Virus record (IMG/VR): IMGVR_UViG_3300005842_000001
Location: 1 to 64,000 of that record
Strand: one strand, 5' to 3'
Length of the DNA stretch: 64,000 nt
DNA from: a virus
Shown: positions 21,033 to 59,072 of the stretch, piece after piece
Numbering within the stretch: the first letter of the stretch is position 1
Layout: each line of letters starts with the position of its first letter
Made by a program: the position numbers and the translations under genes
The notes under the pieces: generated by a model
The model's database searches: none
The model's input: the letters and a program-made list of their open reading frames with translations, nothing else
What the model was told of the DNA's origin: nothing

Positions 21033-21680
21033 ATGAGCGAAGAATCACAGACACTGATTCCACCAAGAGAAGATCGACCGAAGCGCAAGCCTTCAGTTGA
21101 CAAGATGGTGATTGAGTACCGCAGAATGTTGGTGGCTCAAAAGTATTTGCGCGGGCAGTCAATGGACAAGATTGCTCAAGAGATGCCCCCAGAGTTGGCT
21201 TGCTCAAGAAGTTCTGTTTACCGTGACTTACAAGCGCTTCGTGAGATATGGCGAAAAGAAGCCAACCTGCCTATTGCAGACATGCGAGCAAAAGAACTCG
21301 CCAAGATCGATGAGCTTGAACGAACTGCATGGGAAGCGTATGAGATAAGCAAGGGCGACAAGATCGTGTCTCGATTCGGTACAGTGCTGCCAGCGACTAC
21401 AGCAGGAAGCAAGCCATCAGTGACTGGCGCCCACACTCGGACGATCACAAAATCAACCGCTGGTAATCCGCGCTTTCTAGAAATGATAGAAAAGTGCATC
21501 AATCGTCGGTGTGAAATCTTAGGTCTCAAACGTCAAACGACTCTCGATCCTATGGCTGACATGCCCATACTTGGCATATCATTCATCGTCCGTAAGCCAC
21601 AAGAGCCAAAGCAGATCGAAGCAACACAATTGGATTCAATGGAACCAAGCAATGACGGCGAGAATGAACCAACTGCCTGA
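21033..21680 (+). CDS. Putative terminase small subunit
   Basis: The 215-residue protein has a helix-turn-helix-like segment KYLRGQSMDKIAQEMPP followed by CSRSSVYRDLQAL, then KELAKIDELERTAWEAYEIS. This layout is typical of phage small terminase/HTH proteins that recognise DNA for packaging. It sits directly upstream of and overlaps the large terminase. Position and fold type support the call; direct homology was not tested. A TATATC element (21018-21023) and a CTTCC/GGAAG hairpin precede it. Confidence 0.65.
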   Translation: MSEESQTLIPPREDRPKRKPSVDKMVIEYRRMLVAQKYLRGQSMDKIAQEMPPELACSRSSVYRDLQALREIWRKEANLPIADMRAKELAKIDELERTAWEAYEISKGDKIVSRFGTVLPATTAGSKPSVTGAHTRTITKSTAGNPRFLEMIEKCINRRCEILGLKRQTTLDPMADMPILGISFIVRKPQEPKQIEATQLDSMEPSNDGENEPTA

Positions 21681-23130
21681 GCCGCCATTCTGGAACCCGC
21701 TGGCAACTCAGAACGAAAAAGACCCAACCGTAAACCCCGGCAAGTTTTCGTGGATGGGTTCTGATGGTCGTGTGTACTTTGATCTACATGAGGGGCAAGA
21801 GAAAGCTCTTGAGAGTGAAGCAAGATTCATTGCGATCATTGCTGGCACTCAGTCGGGTAAGACAGAAAGTGGACCGCCTTGGCTCTATAACGAAATAGCA
21901 AAGCGTGGCCCTGGCGATTACATCGTTGCATCACCTACCTATCCGTTGCTTCAGAAGAAAGCTCTCCCAGCGTTCATTGAGCTATTCGATACCAAGCTGA
22001 AGCTCGGTCGATACTTTCCAGGTTCAAAGCAGTTCAAGTTTTCCAAAGAAGGATCGAGACGAATCTTTGGACGCTATGTCGACGAAAAGACCATCGTGTT
22101 CTTCGGTCATGCTCAAGACCCAGAGAGCTTGGAGTCAGCGACAGCGAAGGCAGCGTGGCTTGATGAAGCGGGACAACGCAAGTTCAAGCTGGCGTCATGG
22201 GAAGCGTTGCAGCGACGTTTGGCGATGCACATAGGCCGGGCGTTCATCACCACGACGCCTTACGATCTTGGCTGGCTCAAGAAGCAAATCTATGACCGCT
22301 GGAAAGCTGGCGACAAAGATTATGAAGTGATCAACTTCCGTTCGACGATGAACCCGGCTTTCAGTCTGAGAGAATACAACCGGGCAATGAAGACACTGCC
22401 CCGGTGGAAGTTCGATCTGTTCTATAACGGCATATTTACCCGCCCAGCCGGTGCGATCTATGATTGCTTTGAAGAGAAAAAGCATACTTGTCCACGGTTC
22501 GCCATCCCTGATCATTGGGAGCGATTGCTCGGAGTCGATTTCGGCGGCATCAATACTGCTGGCGTGTTCTTTGCCAAAGAGCCGAATACGGGGCGGCTGT
22601 TCGGTTATCGAGAGTACAACAAAAACTATTTCAACGGTGTCTTGCACGAGGGACTACCTCACACTGGCGGCACTTTGTCATGCAAGAAGCACGTTGAGAA
22701 TCTGCTCACTGGTGAAGTGATGATACCTTATGCCGTGGGCGGGGCTAAGTCAGAAAATCAATGGCGTGAAGAGATGCGAAGCGCTGGGCTTCCGGTTCGT
22801 GAGCCTGATCAGAACGAAGTAGAAATCGGCATTGGCCGGGTGTATGGCGGCATCAAAGAGAACCTGGTGGTGTTCTTCGATGATCTGATTTACACGCTTG
22901 ATGAGTTTTCCACTTACTCACGAGAGATGGACGATCAGGGAGAAGTCACCGAAGAGATTGAAGATAAAGAAACGTATCACCATCTTGACGCCTGTAGATA
23001 TATATTAGGCGACGAGTTCAGAGACATACTGACATGGAAGGATATGAAGACTGGCGAAGATCATCAAGAATCTGTAAATCAATACACAGCGCATCGTCAA
23101 TCGGCCAGTGAAATCCTGAAGACTCTCTAA
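21652..23130 (+). CDS. terL: Terminase large subunit
   Basis: The 492-residue ATPase/nuclease that packages DNA into proheads. Walker A GTQSGKT (residues 65-71), Walker B AAWLDEA (about 167-173), motif III-like FITTTPYD, and nuclease motif LLGVDFGG (about 280) with HHLDACRYIL near the C-terminus. All key motifs are present. ATG 21652 overlaps the small-subunit gene by 29 bases; ATG 21664 is an alternative. Confidence 0.93.
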   Translation: MTARMNQLPEPPFWNPLATQNEKDPTVNPGKFSWMGSDGRVYFDLHEGQEKALESEARFIAIIAGTQSGKTESGPPWLYNEIAKRGPGDYIVASPTYPLLQKKALPAFIELFDTKLKLGRYFPGSKQFKFSKEGSRRIFGRYVDEKTIVFFGHAQDPESLESATAKAAWLDEAGQRKFKLASWEALQRRLAMHIGRAFITTTPYDLGWLKKQIYDRWKAGDKDYEVINFRSTMNPAFSLREYNRAMKTLPRWKFDLFYNGIFTRPAGAIYDCFEEKKHTCPRFAIPDHWERLLGVDFGGINTAGVFFAKEPNTGRLFGYREYNKNYFNGVLHEGLPHTGGTLSCKKHVENLLTGEVMIPYAVGGAKSENQWREEMRSAGLPVREPDQNEVEIGIGRVYGGIKENLVVFFDDLIYTLDEFSTYSREMDDQGEVTEEIEDKETYHHLDACRYILGDEFRDILTWKDMKTGEDHQESVNQYTAHRQSASEILKTL

Positions 23131-38712: not shown

Positions 38713-39765
38713 ATGGCATACGACATTCCCGATCTGGTAGCGTTGCAGGAAGTCGAGCAAGAAATCCTGCCCGTTCTCACGATGAATGATCCTTTGTTTG
38801 ATCTGTTCCCTATCGACAGCGAAAATGCTTCGATGATCGAATGGGAACAGAAGGACAACTTTGCTGGCCTGATGGCTGTCCGTGGCATCAATGGCAACCC
38901 TGGCCGAGTCCAGAAAGTGGGTTCAAAGACCTACTCAATGGAACCCGGCTACTACGGTGGCTTCACTCCGCTTGACGAGAAGGAACTCACCAAGCGAAGA
39001 TCGCTCGGCACGTTTGATGAGCCGATCAACATTGATGATCTGATCACAGAAGCTCTTGAGCATCTGATGACTCAGCAGATCAACCGACAGCGGAAGATCA
39101 TCGCTGATCTGATCACCACTGGCACGTTCAGCGTCACGAACGAATTGACTGGCTCAATCGATCACACTGACAGCTTCACGCTGCCAGCTTCGACCGCTTC
39201 GATTCCTTGGACGACTGTTGCAACTGCAACTCCTTTGCTCAACATTCGTGCTGCCATTGCTACCCGCATTGGTTACAGCTACGATTTTGGCAAAGAAGCC
39301 ATCATGTTGATGAATCAGAACACCTACAACAATTTCATCAACAACGCCAACAGCGCTGATCTTGCTGGCAAGCGGGCTTCGTATGGTCAGACTTATCAGA
39401 GTGTCGGTAATCTCAACGACTTGCTGGCGGCTGACAACCTGCCTCAGATTCTGGTCTATAACGAATCTTACTTGGCTACCCCAAGCTCAACGCCTACGCT
39501 GTTGATTCCTGATGGTAAGGTTGTGATCTGCGGCAAGCGAAAGACTGGGCGCTCTCTCGGTAACTTCACAGTGACGAGGAACGCCAATCACCCTGACATG
39601 GCGGCTGCACCTTACTTGTGGATCGTTGACCCGTTCCAAGCTGCCTCTGGCAACATCCTTCCTTCGTCTGGGTCGATTCCTCGAACCATCGAAGTTCACC
39701 GGGGCTTCAATGGTGGCGTCAAGTTGCCCTTCCCTGGTGGCATCTATGTCTTGACCGCCTACTAA
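38713..39765 (+). CDS. Major capsid protein (lambda gpE-like)
   Basis: 350 residues with the lambda E-type layout: N-terminal arm, MEPGYYGGFTPLDEKEL, a helix with MTQQINRQRKIIADLITTG, then IRAAIATRIGY, a long beta domain and the C-terminal GNFTVTRNANHPDMAAAPYLW and IYVLTAY. Forms the capsid shell. SD TGAGGAGAACGGCAC. Followed by a terminator-like hairpin. Confidence 0.88.
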   Translation: MAYDIPDLVALQEVEQEILPVLTMNDPLFDLFPIDSENASMIEWEQKDNFAGLMAVRGINGNPGRVQKVGSKTYSMEPGYYGGFTPLDEKELTKRRSLGTFDEPINIDDLITEALEHLMTQQINRQRKIIADLITTGTFSVTNELTGSIDHTDSFTLPASTASIPWTTVATATPLLNIRAAIATRIGYSYDFGKEAIMLMNQNTYNNFINNANSADLAGKRASYGQTYQSVGNLNDLLAADNLPQILVYNESYLATPSSTPTLLIPDGKVVICGKRKTGRSLGNFTVTRNANHPDMAAAPYLWIVDPFQAASGNILPSSGSIPRTIEVHRGFNGGVKLPFPGGIYVLTAY

Positions 39766-42506: not shown

Positions 42507-43382
42507 ATGTCAGCTAACATTACCACATATCGTAAAGTAGCATTCGGCACAGCCAACCCCCCGGTGAATGCGCTCGAATGGTTTGGCGATCTGAACTTTG
42601 GTAAGCGTGGCACTGTGATTGTGCTAGAAGGCGTTCGTGGCACAAGAAGCCGAATTGTCGAGCGTACCCGTGATGGTCTCTATACTGTCGGCGGTGTGCT
42701 TCAGCTTCAGCCTTGCTATCTCGATCTTGATACGATTCTTCCGCTGATCGCTGGCGGCACGAAAAGCACGAACAACATTCCATTCACTGAGTTGCTACCC
42801 ACGTTCTATGTCGGCATCGACAAGGGCGCTGCTCATTATCTTTACAGCGGCTGCAAAACTTCTGTAGCTGTGTTCTCTGGCTCGACTGGCAATCCACTAT
42901 CGCTGCAATGGGGTATCGAAGGGCTGACCGAGACGCCCGGCACGATCAGCGGTTTAACTGCATTGACGCCAAGCGTTGTTACGCCGTATATGTTCCATGA
43001 CGCTGTGCTGACCATCGCCAGCACTTCTTATGAGTTCAGGGAATGCCAAGTCTCTATCGATCATCACTTGATCCTTGATCGATTCATGAACAGCCAGAGC
43101 AGGACTGAGCTACCTGAAACTGATCGCACAGTGACAGTTGCTTTGTCGCTGCCTTACAATTCGACGACTCTTGCTCTGTATGACACCGGCGTGTCTAGCG
43201 CTGCTGTGGTGCTCACCTGGACGAATGGATCGCTATTCTTCAAGATCACTCTCCCTGCTGTTCAATTCCCTGCTCAACCGCCTCAGATGCCAGCACGAGG
43301 CGAAGCAATGCTTCCTCTCGTTGGCGTGGCCCGCAAGACTGGCTCAACTCTGGAAATCACCTTCGATAACAAGAGCAGCTAA
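42507..43382 (+). CDS. Tail tube protein
   Basis: 291 residues, beta-rich, with YRKVAFGTANPPVNALEWFGD, RSRIVERTRDGLYTVGG and SLQWGIEGLTETPG, typical of long-tailed phage tube proteins. Followed by chaperone frames and tape measure, the standard order. No sheath gene is present before it. Confidence 0.75.
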   Translation: MSANITTYRKVAFGTANPPVNALEWFGDLNFGKRGTVIVLEGVRGTRSRIVERTRDGLYTVGGVLQLQPCYLDLDTILPLIAGGTKSTNNIPFTELLPTFYVGIDKGAAHYLYSGCKTSVAVFSGSTGNPLSLQWGIEGLTETPGTISGLTALTPSVVTPYMFHDAVLTIASTSYEFRECQVSIDHHLILDRFMNSQSRTELPETDRTVTVALSLPYNSTTLALYDTGVSSAAVVLTWTNGSLFFKITLPAVQFPAQPPQMPARGEAMLPLVGVARKTGSTLEITFDNKSS

Positions 43383-44502: not shown

Positions 44503-44906
44503 GAAGAGCCTTGTATGTATCTCTCGTACACTCGTACCTGCCGACATGCGAGGAATGCAAGGCTTATATCTACAACATCAAAACAGGGGAGCCTTTAGTT
44601 CGTGGTGGTCAAAAGTGCAAGCGATCATTCGGAGTAAAGACCCCCTGCCATGAATGCCCGAAGTTAAGCAGGTCAGATCAGTTGACAGATCCACGCCCAG
44701 AGAGGGCAGTAGAGCCAACTGATCGAGTGAAGCAGAGCTATTACTACTATCGCCATTGCGAAGTTGACAAGCATAACATGATGCCTGTCGATAGTCTTGT
44801 CCTCGAAACGAACGCAATCTGTAGAATGGCGGAGGAAGATGCTCGTGCTGCCCAGGCACCGCCGATCATCTTGGCGGCTTCAATGTCTAACTCAGGCGGC
44901 GAATAA
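44499..44906 (+). CDS. Tail assembly chaperone extension (T-like), made by -1 frameshift
   Basis: 135 codons in the -1 frame, joined to the short chaperone as ...ERKN-LRRALYVS to give about 264 residues. It has no ATG near its start; only a TTG at 44511 could start it alone. CEECKAYIYN, KCKRSFGVKTPCHEC and a later Cys suggest a zinc site. The TAA overlaps the ATG of the tape measure. Confidence 0.65.
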   Translation: MRRALYVSLVHSYLPTCEECKAYIYNIKTGEPLVRGGQKCKRSFGVKTPCHECPKLSRSDQLTDPRPERAVEPTDRVKQSYYYYRHCEVDKHNMMPVDSLVLETNAICRMAEEDARAAQAPPIILAASMSNSGGE

Positions 44907-46867: not shown

Positions 46868-47273
46868 AGCCACTGAAGCAAGCGTAGCCGATGCTGTAAA
46901 GAGTGTCGGCATATTTCATCGCTGCCTCATTCAGCTTGCGCCCACTCTGGCTTGGCGGCTTCGATTCTTTGTTGCAGAGTGCATCCTCATATCCTTGGCG
47001 AAGGAAAGAGAAGTAGCTGACGCCTGAAGTGAGCTTGAGCCAGAACTCATCAGCGATCCACTCGTGGTTGTCGCTGAGCTTCAGCGTCTTGCACCACAAG
47101 AGCATCAACAGACCTTGGACGGTAACTTCGCCCTTGTCAGTGGGGGCAGTCATTGGAGAAGCCATCATAGACCATGATCGACCGTTGCCGGTTCCAATTG
47201 CAACATCTGCATAGAGCAGTTCACAATTAGGGTAACGATCAGGAGTTTGGGTAAAGAAAATGCGATTGATCAT
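46839..47273 (-). CDS. Minus-strand accessory gene, 144 aa
   Basis: MINRIFFTQTPDRYPNCELL start at 47273 with AAAGGA eight bases upstream and a promoter-like element (47340-47367) further up, all on the minus strand. The frame extends to 47336, but this start is better. It is convergent with the tape measure and overlaps it by 29 bases. Contains WSMMASPMTAPTDKGEV and SDNHEWIADEFWLKL; no family recognised. A lone minus-strand gene with its own promoter among tail genes looks like a moron. Confidence 0.6.
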   Translation of the reverse strand: MINRIFFTQTPDRYPNCELLYADVAIGTGNGRSWSMMASPMTAPTDKGEVTVQGLLMLLWCKTLKLSDNHEWIADEFWLKLTSGVSYFSFLRQGYEDALCNKESKPPSQSGRKLNEAAMKYADTLYSIGYACFSGSTSLHPQRL

Positions 47274-47339
47274 GTTGATGTTCCTTTGTTTGAGAAGCCC
47301 CCTTGTGTAAGACACTGGCGAGTCATATTGGCTCACCTA

Positions 47340-47367
47340 TCTATAAATATATATGCGCTGATGCCAA
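47340..47367 (-). promoter_or_regulatory. Promoter-like element for the minus-strand gene
   Basis: On the minus strand TTGGCA (47367-47362), 16-base spacer containing TATATATA, then TATAGA (47345-47340). Confidence 0.5.
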
Positions 47368-47420
47368 TAGTAAAATAAAGCTACGTGGAAACTTGGGTGA
47401 ATCTTTGTAAAATTGCGGTC

Positions 47421-48155
47421 ATGCAACTGTTCCTGTCAAACGGGTACGCGCACCAACCCAATGAAGTCAAGGTGCTGTCGATGCAACGCCGGGAAGAAAA
47501 AAACCCCGGCGATCAGCGGACAGCTACTATTGAAACAATGGAGTTGGAAGGCTACCTATTTGCAGTTGATCAGCCTTCTTTGACACTTGGACTGTTGCGA
47601 CTGAAAGCAGCGTACAGCCTCAATGGGTTCGAGGCAGTCTTCCTCGACAATTCAGGGAACAATTCAGCTTATCATCTTGGCGGGCCGACGAGTCGGGGAG
47701 GTTGTGACGTGATCGCCGGGCCTACTCTCATTGCTCAGTATGGCTCTGACTACACGAACTACCACACCTATCGAATCACTCTTGAGGCTGCATACGATTC
47801 TATCTTTGCCGACATTTGGGACTTTCATGAAACGCTGTCATGGACTGGCGACGGGAGCCCTGAAGTTATCTGGATGCCGAATCTCAACATGAAGCCACAG
47901 AAGCAAATAACGTGGGACTCTACCACGTTTCAATGCGTTCAAAAAGGTGTTGTGGTCGGCATGTTTCGTTATGTCAATCCTCCCCCGCCGATCTTTCCTC
48001 AGTACCTCAAGGGTCGAATGACTCAGCAAGAAGAGGATGCTCCAAGGCGCTATGGGCCTCTAGGTCGTCCGTATTATCGTGAGTTCGCTCTCAGGTATTC
48101 TTACACTTTTGAATCAGATGTACCGTTGCTAGGTCATCCTAACAGGTGGGTCTAA
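47421..48155 (+). CDS. Distal tail protein, 244 aa
   Basis: Start ATG 47421 (MQLFLSNGYAHQPNEVKVL) is preferred over GTG 47385. Beta-rich, with Trp/Pro-rich C-terminal part. Position after the tape measure fits a distal tail protein. Divergent from the minus-strand gene. Confidence 0.6.
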   Translation: MQLFLSNGYAHQPNEVKVLSMQRREEKNPGDQRTATIETMELEGYLFAVDQPSLTLGLLRLKAAYSLNGFEAVFLDNSGNNSAYHLGGPTSRGGCDVIAGPTLIAQYGSDYTNYHTYRITLEAAYDSIFADIWDFHETLSWTGDGSPEVIWMPNLNMKPQKQITWDSTTFQCVQKGVVVGMFRYVNPPPPIFPQYLKGRMTQQEEDAPRRYGPLGRPYYREFALRYSYTFESDVPLLGHPNRWV

Positions 48156-48156
48156 T

Positions 48157-49428
48157 ATGCCTTCGACGATTCTTTTTCGTGCTGATGCCACCAAAGTTGC
48201 TGGCCAATCATCGATCACGATCACTGGCTATGACGTGGCAACTACCTACAGCTTGACGATTGGTAACAAGGTTGTCAGTACGCTCGGCGTGGGCGGCACA
48301 GCGGCAACGACTGCGGCGGCGCTGCAAGCGTTGGCAGCGGCATCACAAGACCCAGAGTTCCTTGAACTTAATTTCACTGTTATCAGTGCAACGATCTTTT
48401 GGACTGCCAAAGTTGCTGGTGTGGCGTTCAATGTAACTGGAGCGCCGACGGGTGGCGCTGGAACCATGTCAGGCGTTTCTATCGTTATTGCGAGCAGTGG
48501 CCCTGGCGATCTTAGCGTGTTGGCTAATTACAGCGGCGGTGCATTGCCAGCCGCTGGCGATACTTTGATTTTTGAAAATCTGAGAACTGCCTCAACAGAC
48601 ATTCGATATGGTCTTTCAGCGCTATCAGGCATTGCGCTGGCTAAGATCATCTTCAGAAATTGCAGCATCGATTTTGGTTTGCCACAACTCAATCAACTTG
48701 GCTATTTTGAATATCGCCCTCAGTACCTCACTTTGAATGCTGCCATCATTGAGTTCGATTGTCCTGAGTGTCAGCTTGGACGACTTGATACAGGAGCAAA
48801 TCAAGTTGCGATCACAGTAAAAGCAACAGGCACCAGCAAGGTCAATGGGCTAAAAACTCTGCTCTGGAAAGGCACGCATGCTTCTAATGTCTGTTATTTC
48901 GATAGGGGTCAGATTGGTGTAGCTGTGCTGGCTGGCGAGACTGCTGTGATCGCTACGATGAATTGCGGATATGTTGTCTCGGCTACATCTGATTCAGTTG
49001 TCCAGATCGGATCGAATGCAAGCACCGTAACTCTTGGAACAGTTAATCGAACTGGTGGAACGCTCGACCTCTATTGCGGTACAAGCGGCACGATCACCAG
49101 CAAAGAGAGCGCTGGCTTGATCAGACTGTTCACGAGCAGCACGACAGCATTCCTCTTGAGCTATGCTGGTAGCATTCAGCATTTCGGAAGCGGCACGATC
49201 ACCAACATGACTCTCGGCAATAATGTTTCTTTTGACAGCACTCAGAATGAATATGGCTTCCAGATTACTAACGTGGTGCAAGGGTATAAAGGCTGTTCGT
49301 TCATTGATCCATTCAAGCGGGCTGTTGCTCCTGCGGCGGCTGTTTGGCTTGGCATCAAGGGCAATGGTTGTAAGAATAAGGACATGACCGTAGACCGGGG
49401 CGAAGATTGCATCATCCAGGCTGCTTAA
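48157..49428 (+). CDS. Beta-rich tail protein, 423 aa
   Basis: Ser/Thr/Gly/Ala-rich; the first 110 residues resemble phage beta modules (SITITGYDVATTYSLTIGN). The rest has short repeats with single Cys residues and beta-helix character. Likely a tail fibre or tip component by place and composition. Confidence 0.6.
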   Translation: MPSTILFRADATKVAGQSSITITGYDVATTYSLTIGNKVVSTLGVGGTAATTAAALQALAAASQDPEFLELNFTVISATIFWTAKVAGVAFNVTGAPTGGAGTMSGVSIVIASSGPGDLSVLANYSGGALPAAGDTLIFENLRTASTDIRYGLSALSGIALAKIIFRNCSIDFGLPQLNQLGYFEYRPQYLTLNAAIIEFDCPECQLGRLDTGANQVAITVKATGTSKVNGLKTLLWKGTHASNVCYFDRGQIGVAVLAGETAVIATMNCGYVVSATSDSVVQIGSNASTVTLGTVNRTGGTLDLYCGTSGTITSKESAGLIRLFTSSTTAFLLSYAGSIQHFGSGTITNMTLGNNVSFDSTQNEYGFQITNVVQGYKGCSFIDPFKRAVAPAAAVWLGIKGNGCKNKDMTVDRGEDCIIQAA

Positions 49429-49432
49429 TTCT

Positions 49433-51343
49433 ATGCCACATTTCGAGCAAGGTACTGTCAACTTCCCTGGCATACTCGCCCCCGTAGGGGGGCGATATGC
49501 TTTGACGAGAGGCATCAACCCTGGCATCATTGAGATTCATTGTTGCAATCAGAGAATTGAAAACTTCCGTGGTGCCACTGGCTCTGTTATCTTTCAGCAT
49601 CAGTCCACCGGGTTCTACTTAGAGTTGATCAATTGCAGAGTGTTCCATCACGATCTGATGATTGGTGGAACCAACAAAGAACTCACGATAGCTCTTGAGG
49701 ATCGGCGCTGGCTCTGGCGGTTCCCTAGCATCAGCGGCTGTTACAATCGCAAGACAGCCGATCAGACGATTTACAAAAACTATCGAAAGAATCCGCAAGA
49801 GTTGGCGAAGTTATGCCTTGAAGCGATGGACGAAAAAGGCTATGACGTGTCAGCGCTTCCCACCAACGACTACCCCCCTATTGAGTGGTACGCCAGTAAT
49901 GCAGCGGCGGCGCTGGAGAATCTTGTCAACCTTTATGGTTGCTGTACGACGCTGAACCTCAATGGTTACGTCGTCATCTGCAAGATCGGCGTGGGCAATC
50001 CTCTTCCTCTCAATCTACCATACGACACCAACAACGAAGCGATCATAGCCCCTATACTTCCTGATAGTTACGAAGTGCATTTCGGGCCGACAAAGTATCG
50101 GGTAAATTCCCTGCTACAGTCAGTGGCCATTGACGTGGATGGCGTGATCAAAGGTGCGAACGAAGTAAGCTACAAACCAAAGGTAACAGAAACTGGCGGC
50201 ACTCCTCAATACGCCTGGGACACTGAGATTCCTGGCACGTTCCCTGTGCTGCTTACAAAAGAACTTGAAGGCAACGCTCACTCTGGCCAGCGCCTATTCA
50301 TTATGGACTTGGCCCGAAAGAGCATGTTCAAATACTTCCAGATCAGCACATATCAGCCTGATCCTTCTGCTAGCGACCAGAGCCGTGGCGCTCCGATGGA
50401 GATACCGGGTTGCAAAATCAAGATCGAGGATATTGATCAGTTGTTGCCAATCGACGACACGCTTTACAATGTGTGTCTCGATCCTAGTGCTACTGCTCAA
50501 GACCTGAAGAATAATCGATTCAACCAAGTGTCAGATACCAATTCGATTTCTGAACGGTTGTGGGATGTTGTTGATCTAAGTTTGGTTTGGGGGACGTTCT
50601 TCAAGTCCCTTGGCCACTTCATTGGCACTGCAAAGCAAACAAGTGAGATTGCTTTCAAAAAACCTGAAGGCGAAAACAGTTACAATGCTGGCGGTTATCA
50701 GATCGACAAAGAGCGTGGCATCGTCATGTTCGATGATTATGTGTACAAGATGACTAACCCTGATGATGTAAATAATTCAAAGAGGACTTTTCCCGATCTG
50801 GCATTGAGCTTCATGACCTCAGTGCGTGACAGGAAAACAGGGGCATTCGACCACTATACATATAAACGAGACAGCAAGATCACCAAGAAGAATGGCACCA
50901 AACCTCAAGTGATCATGAAGCCAGAGTATCAACTCGTGGTGACTCACGAGATGTTGAACGGTGGCAACCCTGGCCCGGCAAAACAAGTCAACAAAAAGAT
51001 GCTCGATCAGATCGCTGAATACTACATCAACTTCGTTGAGCAGACTTCCTTGCTTCAGAATCCACAAACGATCAGATACAATGGGCTGCAAGCTGTCAAC
51101 CCTGATGGTGCGGTCGTGAGCGTGACATTTGAAGTGGGCGGCGGCGGTGCGAAGACGACAGCAAGCTACAATGATGAACGCCATCCGTGGCTTCAGCCTT
51201 ATGAAACTCGCCGCCTGAATGAGCGAACTCGACAAGGAATCAATCAGTTCGGCTTTATTCCACCAGCTTTCTTTTTTGCTCCTCGTGCCTTTCCTTATAA
51301 CATGGGTTCTGTATTCTCAAATGTGCAGCCATCAAGGCGCTAA
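49433..51343 (+). CDS. Baseplate hub-like tail protein, 636 aa
   Basis: IEIHCCNQRIENFRGATGSV, ALEDRRWLWRFPSISGCYN and QELAKLCLEAMDEKGYDVSALP recall hub/Tal-type proteins that bind the tube end. The downstream part is beta with YRVNSLLQSVAIDVDG. No lysozyme domain seen. Placed between the distal tail and fibre genes. Confidence 0.6.
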   Translation: MPHFEQGTVNFPGILAPVGGRYALTRGINPGIIEIHCCNQRIENFRGATGSVIFQHQSTGFYLELINCRVFHHDLMIGGTNKELTIALEDRRWLWRFPSISGCYNRKTADQTIYKNYRKNPQELAKLCLEAMDEKGYDVSALPTNDYPPIEWYASNAAAALENLVNLYGCCTTLNLNGYVVICKIGVGNPLPLNLPYDTNNEAIIAPILPDSYEVHFGPTKYRVNSLLQSVAIDVDGVIKGANEVSYKPKVTETGGTPQYAWDTEIPGTFPVLLTKELEGNAHSGQRLFIMDLARKSMFKYFQISTYQPDPSASDQSRGAPMEIPGCKIKIEDIDQLLPIDDTLYNVCLDPSATAQDLKNNRFNQVSDTNSISERLWDVVDLSLVWGTFFKSLGHFIGTAKQTSEIAFKKPEGENSYNAGGYQIDKERGIVMFDDYVYKMTNPDDVNNSKRTFPDLALSFMTSVRDRKTGAFDHYTYKRDSKITKKNGTKPQVIMKPEYQLVVTHEMLNGGNPGPAKQVNKKMLDQIAEYYINFVEQTSLLQNPQTIRYNGLQAVNPDGAVVSVTFEVGGGGAKTTASYNDERHPWLQPYETRRLNERTRQGINQFGFIPPAFFFAPRAFPYNMGSVFSNVQPSRR

Positions 51344-51358
51344 CTTGGGGAAATGATC

Positions 51359-51670
51359 ATGAAAGCTGGCACTGTTTTTCCAAAAGATCACGAGACGTTT
51401 GGAGCTTGGGTAGGCAAAGCTGCTACCTACATTTCAAAAGATCAGGGCGTGGTGATCGCAAAGAGCGTGGTAGTTGATAATGGTTTTGAAATTGCTCTGA
51501 GTGTCGGAACCGACGACAAGATCACTCTTCAGCACATTGGGGCAGATGGTAGACTTCATTGGGCTGTTGTGTCACCAGAAGCATACGAAAGAGCAGTCGT
51601 CGAAATGCTCGAAACGCTCAAGGGGAAGGTGAAGCTCATTCCTAAAGACACTGAAGAGGTCGTGTCTTAG
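51359..51670 (+). CDS. Hypothetical protein, 103 aa
   Basis: ATG 51359 lies 8 bases after GGGG; ATG 51353 is in frame but too close to it. Mixed alpha/beta. Ends just before the tRNA gene. Confidence 0.6.
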   Translation: MKAGTVFPKDHETFGAWVGKAATYISKDQGVVIAKSVVVDNGFEIALSVGTDDKITLQHIGADGRLHWAVVSPEAYERAVVEMLETLKGKVKLIPKDTEEVVS

Positions 51671-51676
51671 AAACTT

Positions 51677-51748
51677 CGCGGGGTGGACCAGCGGTAGGTC
51701 GTCGGGTTCATAACCCGAAGGTCGTGAGTTCGATTCTCACCCCCGCAA
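51677..51748 (+). tRNA. tRNA-fMet (CAU), initiator type
   Basis: Complete cloverleaf. Acceptor CGCGGGG pairs with CCCCGCA except position 1 (C1xA72 mismatch). D-stem GACC/GGTC contains A11:U24. Anticodon stem TCGGG/CCCGA gives three consecutive G:C pairs, with loop TTCATAA (anticodon 51709-51711). T-arm GTGAG/CTCAC. The discriminator is A, and CCA is not encoded. These three features are the known determinants of bacterial initiator tRNA. Confidence 0.93.
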
Positions 51749-51760
51749 TTTTGGTGAGCC

Positions 51761-52195
51761 ATGCTCGATAGAGAACAATCAACCCCTCATACTGATTTTC
51801 AGCGCAAGATACCTTGCTTCAATAATAGTGAGACCGTCACACTCCCAGCCTTCGGTAGCTGCTCTGCAATTGATATGGATGTGGATGACACTTCAGGCGA
51901 GGGATCGTTGACTGTAGACGTGCCAGCGAACGATAACGACAAGCTGGCTTACTTCGTGACTGAAGCTGCTATCCCACCCCAAAGTTCTGGATTCGTTCAA
52001 GTCGATTTCCCTGCTCTTGCTCTGTATGACGATGCTGATGGCACTCCTGGCTTGGATGAGCAGTGGGGGACAAAAGCTGGTGAGGTCAAGCTCAGAAAGG
52101 GCAAGACGGGATTCCTAACCCGCCCTTGGGCTGCTGGCGTGACTCCTAGAATCTCTAACTCAGTGGTAGTAGAGAGGGAAGTATGCCGGTTCTAA
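51761..52195 (+). CDS. Virion-associated protein, 144 aa
   Basis: FNNSETVTLPAFGSC at the start and EVKLRKGKTGFLTRPW later match the pattern of small phage proteins with N(N/D)SxExxPA...G motifs. The same domain recurs at the start of the next gene (INNTAEDCPVYGAC, LHRGYEGFIV). Probable tail-associated protein. 13-base overlap downstream. Confidence 0.6.
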   Translation: MLDREQSTPHTDFQRKIPCFNNSETVTLPAFGSCSAIDMDVDDTSGEGSLTVDVPANDNDKLAYFVTEAAIPPQSSGFVQVDFPALALYDDADGTPGLDEQWGTKAGEVKLRKGKTGFLTRPWAAGVTPRISNSVVVEREVCRF

Positions 52196-53283
52196 TCGGC
52201 CCTGATATGTGTCTGAGACGACTTCCAGTGATCAACAACACTGCTGAAGACTGTCCTGTGTATGGCGCGTGTGAGATTTCTAGGCCAGATGAAAACGGTG
52301 TTTATCAACTTAGGAAGCCTGACAAAGATGATTCAGGCACCGCCTACATCAATACAGAATCAGTGATCAAAGCTAATGGCGGTAGAGGGTATGTTTGCCG
52401 CCAAACTCCGACGTGGGCTTTATATCATGCTGCCGATGGCGATCCTGACAACAGGGAGAGCATAGGCACTCGATCTGGCTTCTGGGAATTGCACCGGGGG
52501 TACGAAGGGTTCATAGTTATTGGTGGTGCTGATGGAACCAAAGTCTATGTAGAAAGAGACGTAACGTGTCGTGATTTAGTGAGCGGTGGGTATTACGGGT
52601 ATTATCCAGCAGGTCGTCCAGCTTCCAATCCATCAGATTGCCCCTCATGCCCAGGAGGAATCGGACCATCACAGATCATTGTTGACGTATTATTTTCTGG
52701 CAGTTGCTCTGGGAATTACACAATAGACGAACACGCCACAGGAACATCTTTATCTTTCTCATGTACTTCAGCAGGAATAGTTGAGCCTGTTTGCTTGCCA
52801 CCGACAGCGCCATCGTCGCATCGCAGCAAAATACAAAGTGTTGTCGAAGAACATTCGTGCTTTTCTAATGTGACGATAACATACACGCACGTTGGTGGTA
52901 ATGTTTTCGTTCCCGATGTGTCAACTCTGCATGGTTGCAAGTTGCATTTCTACGGGAAGATGTGCAACAGCCTTGGCGTGCCAGAGTCATACGATTTTAC
53001 TGCTGAAACTATTTTAACAGTCGAGAATATCACACTAAACGCTGGCTGCACTTCTGCAACCATAGCGTTCACAGGAAGTATCATTTATACTCCGGCGACA
53101 ATAACTTTGATGTTTGCCACCTTTACAGTGCCCACTGATTTCTGCGTATCTATTTGCCCCGAAAACTATTCAAAGACAATTACTGGCTCGCCGTTGTGCA
53201 TTGGTTCTGCAAGCCCGTTCCCGACGGCCCCTCTCTTTACTTGCGATTGCCACATGGCATCTATTGCGTGGAGGCTGGCTTAA
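52183..53283 (+). CDS. Virion-associated protein, 366 aa
   Basis: The N-terminal 135 residues are paralogous to the preceding protein. Then comes a Pro/Gly linker (YYPAGRPASNPSDCPSCPGG) and a Cys-rich beta C-terminal half. The domain duplication with new C-terminus suggests a tail tip or fibre component. No enzyme motif seen. Confidence 0.58.
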   Translation: MPVLIGPDMCLRRLPVINNTAEDCPVYGACEISRPDENGVYQLRKPDKDDSGTAYINTESVIKANGGRGYVCRQTPTWALYHAADGDPDNRESIGTRSGFWELHRGYEGFIVIGGADGTKVYVERDVTCRDLVSGGYYGYYPAGRPASNPSDCPSCPGGIGPSQIIVDVLFSGSCSGNYTIDEHATGTSLSFSCTSAGIVEPVCLPPTAPSSHRSKIQSVVEEHSCFSNVTITYTHVGGNVFVPDVSTLHGCKLHFYGKMCNSLGVPESYDFTAETILTVENITLNAGCTSATIAFTGSIIYTPATITLMFATFTVPTDFCVSICPENYSKTITGSPLCIGSASPFPTAPLFTCDCHMASIAWRLA

Positions 53284-53284
53284 A

Positions 53285-54484
53285 ATGAAAATAAGTCTGC
53301 CATCATGTTCTTACCAAGGAGAGATTACAGAGGGACGATTTTTTTGCTCGAATCCACATGTTGTGTCTCGCCTGCCTGATGGCAAGCATGACATATCTAT
53401 TTGCGACAAATGTAATCGACACTCGGAGAGGCCGCAAGAGAAACCGCATGCACCTCAAAACAAATCTAGCAGCAATCTTCTTCGCTCACTTCCTATCGCC
53501 AAGCAATGCAAGTATTTAGGCGACCGGCTCACGCCGGAGGAAGTCAAAGAAAAGCAGTTGACGGGATGCCGAACTTGTAGCGGTGAAGTACCTGCGTTTC
53601 ATTGCAAGTTTCCCGGCATGAAGAAGTTTAATGACGGGCCGTATACTCGGATTGCTGAGTGCATGAACTGCACGGACTGGAAAGGCAAAGACACCATCAT
53701 CGAATCTCCTGCTTACGGCAAGCACGGCGTGGTCATAGGCTCCTACGGCATGCCGGGTGTGGTTGAGCTCTCCATCGCCATGATCCGTGAGACCTGCGGC
53801 CCGGACATACCCATACTCATTGCCGACGACTGCACTCCTGAATCGATGGGCAGGCAGCGGCTACTCTCGCTTCCCACAAAATACCCTGGTGTTTCACTAC
53901 ACATGACTGGCGAGAACTTGGGGCACGCGCCGGGCGATATCCGTGCCTACCGCAACGGTATCAGATGGGCCGAAAAGCACGGCATCAAATACATCTGCAA
54001 ACTCTCCCAGCGGTTCATCTTTTTGTCTGATCGCTGGCTTCAAGATGTTGTTAGGGAGATGGAGATTCACGGATATGCTACGTCTAGCCAACGAGCGGTG
54101 CATCTTCACATGCAGTTCGCTATCCGGTCAGAGTGCGTGTTCATGGATGTGAAGAAATGCGTAAATAGTCCAGGGTTAATGGCGAGGCTCGATCCTCCTG
54201 GCGGTAAAATACCAACTTCAGCAGAGAGTTGGTTGCATGCTGGAATTAACGAAGGTAAATTATTACCGGTCATGCGATGCCGCCTGATGCCGGTAGACAG
54301 GTTTGGAAAACACAGCTCTGTTCTTTGGCACAACTCAGATGCCGATGATAGTTGTCAGGGGGGGGCTGAAGCATATCATAATCTTGCAAAAGAAATGGGC
54401 ATTGACCTTGGGCCTGAGTTTAGTGGCGCTGGCTGGCATGTCATCGCATCAATGCGGCCCGATGCTAATTATAAAATGCTTTAG
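53285..54484 (+). CDS. Glycosyltransferase-like protein with Cys-rich N-terminus
   Basis: ATG 53285 follows the previous TAA by one base. The first 140 residues hold many cysteines (CSYQG, CDKCNRH, CRTCSGEV, CMNCTDWKG). From residue about 150 a GT-A-like region follows: VVIGSYGMPGVVELSIAMIR, IPILIADDCTPES, YRNGIRWAEKHGIKYICKLSQRF. The usual catalytic DxD is not clear; ADD at about 180 is a candidate. It may modify phage or host glycans; function unproven. Confidence 0.6.
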   Translation: MKISLPSCSYQGEITEGRFFCSNPHVVSRLPDGKHDISICDKCNRHSERPQEKPHAPQNKSSSNLLRSLPIAKQCKYLGDRLTPEEVKEKQLTGCRTCSGEVPAFHCKFPGMKKFNDGPYTRIAECMNCTDWKGKDTIIESPAYGKHGVVIGSYGMPGVVELSIAMIRETCGPDIPILIADDCTPESMGRQRLLSLPTKYPGVSLHMTGENLGHAPGDIRAYRNGIRWAEKHGIKYICKLSQRFIFLSDRWLQDVVREMEIHGYATSSQRAVHLHMQFAIRSECVFMDVKKCVNSPGLMARLDPPGGKIPTSAESWLHAGINEGKLLPVMRCRLMPVDRFGKHSSVLWHNSDADDSCQGGAEAYHNLAKEMGIDLGPEFSGAGWHVIASMRPDANYKML

Positions 54485-54539
54485 TCTTGACCTTTCTCAC
54501 GCAATGTGTATATGGTTAGCCAATAAGGGGAATCACGCC

Positions 54540-54728
54540 ATGTCGAAAATCTTTACAGTCCTGTCATTATTACTGCTCATCGGCTGTAACCAGCAGCCTA
54601 CGACAGCACAGATCGCTGAAGGCATCATGATAGCCGAGAAAGAAAAGAAGCTCGACAACATGCTTGATCGGCTTAAATCAATGAAGGCACACGCTCAGAG
54701 CATTAAGGATATTTCAGCAAGTAAGTAA
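54540..54728 (+). CDS. Small lipoprotein, 62 aa
   Basis: MSKIFTVLSLLLLIGCNQQ has a lipobox LLIGC with the lipidated Cys at 16. The rest is a charged helix. The start is set by AAGGGGAATCACGCC. Could be a Rz1-like spanin or a superinfection-exclusion lipoprotein; neither can be shown. Confidence 0.6.
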   Translation: MSKIFTVLSLLLLIGCNQQPTTAQIAEGIMIAEKEKKLDNMLDRLKSMKAHAQSIKDISASK

Positions 54729-54756
54729 TGCGGCATCCTTGCCGACAGTTCTCAAT

Positions 54757-54785
54757 CTCCTAGCTATATGCTACACGGCCAGGAG
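54757..54785 (+). promoter_or_regulatory. Inverted repeat with TATATG between anti-SD and SD
   Basis: CTCCT (54757-54761) pairs with AGGAG (54781-54785), the SD of gene 54794. TAGC and GCTA form an inner stem around TATAT. Same layout as 14043-14081, though shorter. Confidence 0.5.
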
Positions 54786-54793
54786 ATAGATAT

Positions 54794-55945
54794 ATGTTTC
54801 GGTTCAAGATGGTTGCTTTTGCCTTTTTAATTCTTTGCGGGCAAGCATTCGGGCAAAACAAAATCAGAATGAGTGTTGTGCCGACTGGATCGCCAGCACC
54901 AATAACCTACAAGGAAGTAACGCTTGAACTTGGCCAGATGTATACTGTTGAGTTCGCTACAGCAGACAATAAAGCTCCTTTTGGTGGCCAGCCTTATTCG
55001 GTCGAATGCGAAGCGGTTGGAAGTAATACACCTTCGACCTGGATTCGTGGCCTTGTGCCTCTCGACAACAACTACAAGAACCTTGCTCCTGAAAATCTGA
55101 TCGACACTGCAACAGTATTTGTCAGCGATGAAACTCCTGATGCCATGGTGTTGCGAGCAGTCTGCAATAACAGAACAGTTTTCAGGGCGAACATCACGGC
55201 GATCAAGAAAAAGAAACCGCCACAACCTAGCCCCTATCTTGCTGCGCTCACCACTGCGGCTGCTCTTGATCATGCCCAGCCAGTCGAGCTATCGACGCTG
55301 GCGATGGCGTATAAAAACGTTGCTGGCATGATGGGTTCACTAAAGACTGGCCGGGACGTTTGGTCAGCAATCGGTATTGAGTACCTAAAAATATCTGCTG
55401 GCAGTTTGATTCAGACACGAGATGCCATCAGCAAGATTCTGATGAGCGATACGGTGCGGTATTACGATCTACAGTTGACAGCAGACGACTCGAAAGCGCT
55501 CAAGCTCATTCTGGTAAACATTGAGACAGCACTTGAGGCGTTGGCAGCAGGGCCAACGCCTTCGCCGCCGACGCCCGGCCCGCCTACCCCTAATCCTGTT
55601 TCCCCTTCGCCTTTCTCTGATCCTGGCTTCAGGGTGCTAATCGTTTACAAGACAGCAGACAAAGGAAAGATTCCACAGTCTCAGGATATAGCACTCAGGG
55701 CGGCTGCTCTGAGGACGTATCTCAATGCAAAGTGTGTCAAGGTCGATTCAACTCCTGAATGGCGAATCTGGCCGGATGATGTTGACACAGCGAACGAAAA
55801 ACCGATCTGGCAGAATGCTATGAAGCTACCTCGTGCCAGCACTCCTTGGATTTACATTGGCGACGGTCAAAAGGGAATCTCTTGCGCTCTGCCCGCTGAC
55901 ACAGATGGCGTTCTAAAGCTATTGCAGCAATATGGTGGGCAATGA
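54794..55945 (+). CDS. Exported protein with Pro-rich linker, 383 aa
   Basis: Signal peptide MFRFKMVAFAFLILCGQAFG. A beta domain follows (about 22-125), then a helical region (about 140-245), a linker TPSPPTPGPPTPNPVSPSP (about 250-270), and an alpha/beta C-terminal domain with DPGFRVLIVYKTADKGKIP. AGGAG SD at 8 bases. Function unknown; exported proteins of this size are unusual in phages. Confidence 0.6.
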   Translation: MFRFKMVAFAFLILCGQAFGQNKIRMSVVPTGSPAPITYKEVTLELGQMYTVEFATADNKAPFGGQPYSVECEAVGSNTPSTWIRGLVPLDNNYKNLAPENLIDTATVFVSDETPDAMVLRAVCNNRTVFRANITAIKKKKPPQPSPYLAALTTAAALDHAQPVELSTLAMAYKNVAGMMGSLKTGRDVWSAIGIEYLKISAGSLIQTRDAISKILMSDTVRYYDLQLTADDSKALKLILVNIETALEALAAGPTPSPPTPGPPTPNPVSPSPFSDPGFRVLIVYKTADKGKIPQSQDIALRAAALRTYLNAKCVKVDSTPEWRIWPDDVDTANEKPIWQNAMKLPRASTPWIYIGDGQKGISCALPADTDGVLKLLQQYGGQ

Positions 55946-56052
55946 GATTATTCGGTTACTTGCTCGAATTGATTGCCTTTTTTGTTCGCTGTCGTTTTAC
56001 GATAGAGAACTGGAAGCAAAGTAGAAAGCGAAGCCAACGCATAGGAGCTTGA
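55942..56052 (+). CDS. Small hypothetical protein, 36 aa
   Basis: ATGA overlap with the preceding stop; GGTGGGCA upstream. MRLFGYLLELIAFFVRCRF is an amphipathic or membrane helix, then a basic tail. Confidence 0.45.
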   Translation: MRLFGYLLELIAFFVRCRFTIENWKQSRKRSQRIGA

Positions 56053-56055
56053 ATC

Positions 56056-56868
56056 ATGGCTGAAGAAATCATCATACACGATGGCAACTACACCGACTTC
56101 ATCGATTGTGAAGTGAACGGCGAAAAGAAACACCGTGGGCTGAAGCCTCGTAACTATGCTATCCACCCGGTAGGCTGCTTTGCGTTCGCTCCACGCTTTA
56201 GCCTTGACATTATTCCTGAATCACAGTGGCAATCACGTCTTGATGAATTGATCGCCCGCAAAGCTCAGCTATCAGATATTCGCAACACCGGTATGAACGG
56301 CTCAAGGATTCCTTCTCGTGATCAAAACGGAAGAGGGTACTGCTGGGGGCATAGCTCGACGAGCGTAGCGATGATCTGGCGGGCGTTAATGGGGCTGCCT
56401 TATGCTGATCTGTCGGCATATGCCGTTTGTTGCATCATCAAACGGTTCAGAGACGAGGGCGGCAATGCAATCGATTCTCTATCGTTCATGGCTGACAGGG
56501 GCATACCTACCAGTCAGTATTGGCCTCAGCAGTCAACCAACAGATCGAACGATAATCCGCAAACGTGGGCCAATGCTGCTCTGCATAAGTTCGCTCCTAA
56601 CTGGATGGACTTAGACACTGATCAGGATCAGATGCGAGCGCAGTTGGTAACGTGTCTGCTACTTGGCATTCCTGTTGCCACTGATTTCGATTGGTGGGGA
56701 CATTCGGTTGCTTCTATCGATCTTGTCAGTGTCAGACCATTCAGAACACGCATCTGGAACTCTTGGGGCGACGATTGGAGCGATAACGGCATGGGCCTAC
56801 TCGAAGGATCGAAGGCGATTCCCAATGGTGCTGTAGCTGCCTTAACGATGAGCGCTTCGTACAACTAA
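56056..56868 (+). CDS. Papain-like (C1) cysteine protease
   Basis: 270 residues with NGRGYCWGHSSTSVAMI (Cys96, preceded by the oxyanion-type region), WWGHSV (His216) and RIWNSWGDDWSDNGMGLL (Asn235), the papain triad motifs in order. No signal peptide. The N-terminal about 80 residues may act as a pro-region. C1 proteases occur in some phage genomes; role here (host takeover, lysis or virion processing) is open. SD ATAGGAGCTTGAATC. Confidence 0.8.
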   Translation: MAEEIIIHDGNYTDFIDCEVNGEKKHRGLKPRNYAIHPVGCFAFAPRFSLDIIPESQWQSRLDELIARKAQLSDIRNTGMNGSRIPSRDQNGRGYCWGHSSTSVAMIWRALMGLPYADLSAYAVCCIIKRFRDEGGNAIDSLSFMADRGIPTSQYWPQQSTNRSNDNPQTWANAALHKFAPNWMDLDTDQDQMRAQLVTCLLLGIPVATDFDWWGHSVASIDLVSVRPFRTRIWNSWGDDWSDNGMGLLEGSKAIPNGAVAALTMSASYN

Positions 56869-58877: not shown

Positions 58878-59072
58878 ATGCTCGTGCTAAGCCGAAAAAA
58901 ACATGAAGCGATCATCATCAATGACAACATCACAATCAGTGTGGTTGAGATACGGGGCGACAAAGTGAGGATCGGTATCGTTGCGCCGAAAGAAGTGCCA
59001 GTGCATCGTCAAGAAGTGTATGAGGCGATTCACGAAAAAGAATCTTCCAGAAATCTGTTGCAGCCTGCCTGA
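58878..59072 (+). CDS. csrA: CsrA/RsmA-type RNA-binding regulator
   Basis: 64 residues; bacterial CsrA is about 61. MLVLSRKKHEAIIINDNITI, VRIGIVAPKEVPVHRQEVY and the basic residues R6 and R44-equivalent are conserved. CsrA dimers bind GGA motifs in mRNA leaders and block or activate translation; a phage copy may rewire host or phage translation. Its own leader AAGGAGGACTGAGT contains two overlapping GGA triplets, so self-regulation is possible. The stop overlaps a 20-base palindrome. Confidence 0.95.
   Translation: MLVLSRKKHEAIIINDNITISVVEIRGDKVRIGIVAPKEVPVHRQEVYEAIHEKESSRNLLQPA

What the first reader, a model, noticed from the sequence alone, without database searches (positions are those of the whole stretch)
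51677..51748. Phage-encoded initiator tRNA-fMet
The tRNA has CAU anticodon plus all three initiator determinants: C1xA72 mismatch, three consecutive G:C pairs in the anticodon stem, A11:U24. The acceptor and anticodon arms closely follow bacterial tRNA-fMet. Phage tRNAs are usually elongators, so an initiator copy, alone and inside the late region, suggests control of translation initiation. It fits with csrA, another translation-initiation regulator, in the same genome, and with the use of GTG starts.
Basis: partly seen in the sequence, partly recalled or inferred. Interest (0 to 1): 0.75.

Follow-up and report, generated by a model that had tools for sequence, protein, structure and literature searches.

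The report
Phage initiator tRNA with altered loop
A bacterial virus carries its own copy of the special tRNA that starts every protein, with a change beside a spot where a known bacterial enzyme cuts this tRNA; similar changes recur in many unrelated viruses but turned up in none of the bacterial genomes checked.

Summary
Window 51677-51748 (+) is a complete initiator tRNA: anticodon CAU, C1xA72, A11:U24, three G:C pairs at 29-31:39-41. It is the only tRNA found in a 72.8-kb phage record and lies between two co-directional genes. Phage initiators are not new; several isolate records hold one.

IMG/VR holds 16 stretches with U32/A38 and 69 with an altered base 38, many next to terminase, portal or capsid genes. 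None of the bacterial matches I saw is altered: U32 0 of 398 and 0 of 299 genomes; base 38 0 of 200. Shigella and Salmonella VapC cut tRNA-fMet between A38 and C39 (literature).

Best reading, inferred: a phage-supplied spare initiator that keeps late translation going when the host initiator is lost, with a loop altered to resist anticodon-loop nucleases. The csrA link and GTG-start argument are not supported. Limits: host and its nucleases unknown, no RNA or biochemical data, and unaltered loops are commoner in IMG/VR (at least 120 stretches, many being host tRNAs at prophage ends).

The parts
51677..51748 (+). initiator tRNA gene (tRNA-fMet, CAU), C1 to A73, no encoded CCA
51707..51713 (+). 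anticodon loop (UUCAUAA, positions 32-38): U32 replaces the bacterial C32; position 38 is A
   Evidence: comparison
51353..51670 (+). upstream ORF, 105 aa, stop 6 bases before the tRNA; no PHROGs or Pfam match
51761..52195 (+). downstream ORF, 144 aa, starts 12 bases after the tRNA with GGTGAG upstream; no PHROGs or Pfam match
21571..23130 (+). terminase large subunit (context)
   Evidence: phrog_2 E 7.3e-29
38713..39765 (+). major head protein (context)
   Evidence: phrog_29 E 3.1e-20
42507..43382 (+). minor tail protein (context)
   Evidence: phrog_290 E 5.1e-9
58878..59072 (+).

Best explanation
The gene makes a functional initiator tRNA that the phage supplies late in infection as a spare, so that translation initiation continues when the host initiator becomes limiting or is destroyed. 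Shown by sequence: initiator identity, lone position in a dense co-directional gene block, and the C32-to-U32 change. Inferred: it is cut out of a polycistronic late transcript, its CCA end is added by the host enzyme, it is charged by MetRS and formylated by Fmt, and it replaces the host initiator. Inferred and most specific: the change at the base of the anticodon loop (U32 here; an altered base 38, often with U32, in many other phages) makes the spare less sensitive to anticodon-loop ribonucleases of the VapC kind, which cut tRNA-fMet between A38 and C39. With U32 the naked RNA is predicted to pair U32 with A38, which would place that bond in a helix.
For: Initiator determinants. Same altered class in IMG/VR: 16 stretches U32/A38 and 69 with base 38 not A (62 parse, 52 unique sequences: U32C38 36, C32C38 11, U32U38 8, C32U38 6, U32G38 1). 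Bacteria: U32 0 of 398 genomes (phylum of G019) and 0 of 299 (phylum of G023); base 38 not A 0 of 200. The same kind of search does find normal initiators: 134 of 200, 29 of 41, 30 of 95, 51 of 101, and every listed match is C32A38. Recurrent origin: 9 of 13 unique U32/A38 tRNAs are closer to a C32 tRNA than to another U32 one, two of them by only 1-2 other bases. Context: among 77 neighbour proteins of base-38 loci, the largest named PHROGs families are major head protein 6, terminase large subunit 5, portal 3, tail sheath 3; U32 initiators sit beside or near terminase or head-tail genes in L215, L221, L225, QDWS359, DoCa5, Javan59. VapC cut site A38/C39: PMC4105405 passage. Precedents: PMC10264068 section 4, PMC11555353 passages. 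U32:A38 pairing.
Against: Unaltered C32A38 initiators are commoner in IMG/VR (at least 120 stretches, scan truncated), and in isolate phages with large tRNA arrays the loop is normal (Erdmann, ScoobyDoobyDoo, PegLeg, Slicko01). The window has only the milder change (A38 kept), and the VapC literature that I saw does not say whether U32 protects. The U32:A38 pairing idea does not explain the C38 and U38 variants, which form no Watson-Crick pair with 32. Host and its nucleases are unknown; no expression, charging or infection data. PMC10264068 reports that phages of Shigella generally avoid encoding tRNA-fMet.
Confidence: 0.45

Rival explanations
1. Plain dosage: the phage adds initiator tRNA because initiation is limiting late in infection or because host tRNAs and their genes decay. 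The loop change is incidental or tunes P-site binding.
For: Lone initiator downstream of head and tail genes; canonical-loop initiators also occur in phages; phage tRNAs making up for depleted host tRNAs is a published idea, cited within PMC11555353.
Against: Does not by itself explain why 32 and 38 change again and again while no bacterial match seen here is altered.
Confidence: 0.3
2. Relaxed constraint: phage copies drift at 32 and 38 because a spare tRNA tolerates it; no selection for the change.
For: Position 37 also varies (13 stretches); anticodon stem pairs 27:43 and 29:41 differ too.
Against: Changes are concentrated and biased: base 38 69 stretches against base 37 13 and purine-32 3, none of the 3 parsing as a tRNA; initiator hallmarks are kept.
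Confidence: 0.15
3. Processing mark: the tRNA fold serves mainly to let RNase P and 3' nucleases cut the late polycistronic mRNA between two genes.
For: Gaps of 6 and 12 bases to the flanking genes; no promoter-like or terminator-like site between the neighbouring genes and the tRNA in the scan.
Against: Would not require the initiator determinants to be kept.
Confidence: 0.06
4. Control of initiation together with CsrA, favouring GTG starts.
For: A CsrA-like gene is present at 58878-59072.
Against: Start codons look ordinary; no physical or sequence link between the two genes was found.
Confidence: 0.03
5. Host tRNA at a prophage boundary, or att-site remnant.
For: Many IMG/VR C32A38 hits are probably of this sort: integrases lead the neighbour tally.
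Against: Full-length, internal to a phage record, genes of the same strand on both sides, no match of the tRNA core in genome contigs, near-identical contig L016 keeps the arrangement.
Confidence: 0.01

Closest known systems
Bacterial initiator tRNA (tRNA-fMet)
   Same: CAU anticodon, C1xA72, A11:U24, three G:C pairs, G2:C71, C3:G70, G4:C69
   Different: U32 instead of C32, flipped 12:23 pair, no encoded CCA, phage-borne; nearest C32 tRNA parsed here differs at 8 other positions
Phage tRNAs with anticodon-loop mutations (van den Berg et al. 2023, PMC10264068)
   Same: phage-borne tRNA with a base change next to a known anticodon-nuclease cut site
   Different: that work concerns mainly tRNA-rich mycobacteriophages and reports that tRNA-fMet is generally avoided in Shigella phages (section 4); here a lone initiator, with altered loops in many phages
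T5 tRNA-Tyr against retron Eco7, and tRNA-Lys variant against PARIS (PMC11555353 and work cited there)
   Same: a phage tRNA makes up for tRNA destroyed by a defence system
   Different: experimentally shown there, elongator tRNAs; not tested here
Lone or paired initiators beside terminase genes in phage records QDWS359, DoCa5, PaMx74, Javan59
   Same: initiator traits, U32, next to terminase genes
   Different: different phage lineages and hosts; PaMx74 also has C38; DoCa5 and Javan59 lack the third G:C pair; QDWS359 has a tRNA-Ile beside it

Membership tests
Bacterial initiator tRNA (tRNA-fMet) | CAU anticodon in a complete tRNA fold | tested here: met
Bacterial initiator tRNA (tRNA-fMet) | 1:72 mismatch (C1xA72) | tested here: met
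Bacterial initiator tRNA (tRNA-fMet) | A11:U24 | tested here: met
Bacterial initiator tRNA (tRNA-fMet) | three G:C pairs 29-31:39-41 | tested here: met
Bacterial initiator tRNA (tRNA-fMet) | C32/A38 loop, constant in the bacterial matches seen here (a common trait, not a recognised determinant) | tested here: not met
   U32; C32A38 in every listed bacterial match
Bacterial initiator tRNA (tRNA-fMet) | charging by MetRS, formylation, P-site entry | not testable with these tools
   needs biochemistry
Elongator tRNA-Met or tRNA-Ile2 | paired 1:72 position | tested here: not met
   C1xA72
Nuclease-evading phage tRNA (PMC10264068 type) | phage-borne tRNA with loop change near a known cut site | tested here: met
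   U32 facing A38 at the A38/C39 site
Nuclease-evading phage tRNA (PMC10264068 type) | host has a nuclease that targets this tRNA | not tested
   host unknown
Nuclease-evading phage tRNA (PMC10264068 type) | insensitivity to that nuclease | not testable with these tools
   needs a cleavage assay
Prophage attachment-site tRNA | integrase next to the tRNA at a host junction | tested here: not met
   the ten proteins scanned from 44906 to 56868 match no PHROGs family, and genes of the phage record lie on both sides; not every gene of the record was scanned

The most novel reading that the evidence does not exclude
Many unrelated phages carry an initiator tRNA, often alone and in or near the packaging and head gene block, whose anticodon loop has been changed at positions 32 and 38, again and again, to escape host ribonucleases that shut down protein synthesis by cutting tRNA-fMet at A38/C39. 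That would make initiator tRNA a common battleground between phages and toxin-type nucleases, and the window tRNA an early-stage (U32 only) example.
Probability: 0.35. Interest if true: 0.8.

Novelty: new variant of a known kind. Interest (0 to 1): 0.58.

Why it matters
Initiator tRNA is used for every protein and is a known target of VapC and AtaT toxins (PMC7180214 passages), yet the one comparative paper whose results I read says phages avoid encoding it in Shigella. If altered-loop phage initiators resist such nucleases, they give a simple, testable marker of anti-phage tRNA cleavage, with sequenced phages at hand (PaMx74, QDWS359, DoCa5, Javan59), and show which loop positions an initiator can change and still work.

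Tried and rejected
Host: not found. The exact tRNA core has no match in genome contigs; the 7-base D loop is widespread, by record titles in Bacillota, Bacteroidota and Chloroflexota among others, so it is no host mark; CsrA hits are all under 61% identity. A Planctomycetes-like look of CsrA is recalled only and was not tested.

Near-phage comparison: no megablast match for the 11-kb region in the phage collection. Terminase relatives at 31-41% (L007-L015) carry no initiator in the records searched; one has a tRNA-Val. So no diverged relative with the tRNA was available for a selection test.

Idea that U32 marks one phage tRNA lineage: rejected in its simple form (rough trees of about 73 columns). 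With base-38 variants added, 42 changes for 66 altered tips of 237 against a shuffle mean of 58.4, so some clustering exists.

Idea that both changes restore a 32:38 pair: rejected, since U32C38, C32C38 and U32U38 dominate.

Idea that altered loops are the rule in phages: not shown. My IMG/VR patterns fix much of the tRNA; the C32A38 scan stopped at 120 rows; by overlap (11 of its 64 C32 loci fall among the 120) I guess about 700 in all, many of them probably host tRNAs at prophage ends. The phage-collection records were found by similarity to U32 or U32C38 queries, so that sample favours altered loops; I fetched 23 regions of 59 and 307 matching records. In the neighbour scans I gave 77 of 126 listed proteins for the altered set, all from base-38 loci, and 77 of the 140 that the script printed (list cut at 140) for the C32A38 set, leaving out by hand some very long or short proteins, six isolate-derived loci and the end of the list; only the top 25 families are shown, so the tallies are partial.

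Full report
What is there. ARAGORN and Rfam agree on one tRNA, Met(CAU), at 51676-51749 and 51677-51748 of the window. It has no encoded CCA, whereas bacterial initiator genes often encode it (title and abstract start of PMC5143459, listed). It is the only tRNA found in the 72,805-base virus record. It begins 6 bases after the stop of a 105-aa ORF and ends 12 bases before a 144-aa ORF, all on the + strand. The capsid gene lies about 12 kb upstream and a minor tail gene about 8 kb upstream; ten proteins from 44.9 to 56.9 kb match no PHROGs family, and ten proteins from 44.9 to 58.2 kb give one sub-threshold Pfam match. 'Late region' is therefore plausible, not proven. A near-identical contig (L016) keeps the same tRNA in place.

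The anticodon loop is UUCAUAA, with U32, whereas the bacterial initiators met here have C32. An IMG/VR scan with the initiator pattern and U32 found 16 stretches. Of the 15 new ones 13 parse as tRNAs; most keep C1xA72 and A11:U24. Scans with other loop changes gave 69 stretches with base 38 not A, 13 with base 37 not A and 3 with a purine at 32, none of which parsed. Of the 69, 62 parse: U32C38 36, C32C38 11, U32U38 8, C32U38 6, U32G38 1, with 1:72 being CA 28, CU 27, CC 7.

Bacterial control. In the phylum of G019 (a Mariprofundaceae genome by the title of L100) the full pattern with C or U at 32 matched 134 of 200 genomes, every listed match being C32A38, though the list was cut. U32 alone matched 0 of 398 and base 38 not A 0 of 200. 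In the phylum of G023 (a Psychrobacillus by the title of L118) U32 matched 0 of 299 and the C32 control 29 of 41. Two more phyla gave 30 of 95 and 51 of 101 genomes, all listed matches C32A38. The 46 unique bacterial tRNAs parsed from L085-L204 are all C32A38. A Fisher test on 85 altered against 120 or an estimated 700 unaltered in IMG/VR, and 0 against 244 bacterial genomes, gives p 7e-35 or 4e-11. Stretches are not independent, the 700 is my guess, and for the 29 genomes base 38 was not tested, so these numbers are only a guide.

Context. U32 initiators lie directly after the large terminase gene in QDWS359 and DoCa5, before the small terminase gene in Javan59, between terminase and portal in L221, near a terminase in L225, beside a tail protein in L226 and a head-tail adaptor in L215; L216 is beside a helicase gene instead. 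PaMx74 has a U32C38 initiator after terL. Neighbour proteins of base-38 loci are led by head, terminase, portal and sheath families, those of C32A38 loci by integrases (phrog_1 7 and phrog_216 5 of 77), which fits host tRNA-fMet at prophage ends. Of unique tRNAs, 46 of 63 altered and 47 of 82 C32A38 ones have no other tRNA within 3 kb (76 of 85 and 102 of 109 loci parsed). Isolate phages with large tRNA arrays keep the normal loop (PegLeg, ScoobyDoobyDoo, Erdmann, Slicko01), and so do PHB04, ct7L0027 and Pan5, which lack one or more initiator traits, and Y6, Philippe and Lak-B1. PHB09 and POI1126 have U32C38 with other 1:72 mismatches. The initiator-like matches in PSS2, NTR1 and the second ones in Alone3, RcXuper and Serratia BF did not parse.

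Origin. Of 13 unique U32/A38 tRNAs, 9 are closer to some C32 tRNA than to another U32 one; L227 and L221 differ from C32 tRNAs at only 1 and 2 other positions. On a rough tree the label changes 12 times for 13 tips. This points to repeated change rather than one phage lineage; the trees rest on few columns. Columns that separate altered from unaltered sets, apart from 32 and 38 by construction, are mostly in the anticodon stem (27:43, 29:41), plus position 9 and one T-stem pair.

Meaning. VapC of Shigella and Salmonella cuts tRNA-fMet between A38 and C39 (PMC4105405, passage), and tRNA-cutting VapCs act in the anticodon stem-loop (PMC7180214, passages; PMC8522696, passages). Van den Berg et al. 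propose that phage tRNAs escape such nucleases through loop mutations, and report that phages of Shigella generally avoid tRNA-fMet (PMC10264068, section 4); phage Sf14 also lacks it (PMC12482277, passages). A phage tRNA-Tyr protects against retron Eco7 (PMC11555353, passages). A spare initiator altered at the 32/38 position is what evasion would predict. For the window this rests on U32 alone: the naked RNA fold pairs U32 with A38, but C38 and U38 variants elsewhere cannot work that way. Dosage without evasion, and relaxed constraint, remain open.

Is it in print? Searches showed no paper on altered-loop phage initiators in their listings; only open-licence papers are held, so this is weak evidence of absence.

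Csr and GTG. The CsrA-like protein at 58878-59072 is real but no link to the tRNA was found, and start-codon use looks ordinary.

Noticed in passing
window 58878-59072: CsrA-like 64-aa protein; best phage-collection match 60% identity (MT836129), the other 82 records under 60%.
   Followed up: partly
L002 7019-8158 and 8661-10196 (record 67018-68157 and 68660-70195): Two nearby genes that look by eye like a MoxR-type AAA ATPase and a VWA-domain protein; unusual for a phage. Names are from reading the translations, not from a search.
   Followed up: no
L002 4072-4923: ORF with an SPPY motif, by eye a likely DNA methyltransferase.
   Followed up: no
window 44906-56868: Ten proteins, up to 653 aa, with no PHROGs match: a largely unknown gene block downstream of the tail gene.
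   Followed up: partly
window 56056-56868: Weak, sub-threshold Pfam match to papain-family peptidase (E 0.0034).
   Followed up: no
L411-L423: Thirteen IMG/VR initiators with base 37 changed (G or U instead of A).
   Followed up: no
L215, L217, L223 and many of L342-L410: Phage initiators whose 1:72 mismatch is C-C or C-U instead of C-A.
   Followed up: no
L426 2501-2572 (PaMx74) and L214 3001-3073 (Javan59): Initiator tRNAs not annotated in the public records.
   Followed up: partly
L019 1501-1572: Distant terminase relative carries a tRNA-Val(cac), the only tRNA match in its record.
   Followed up: no
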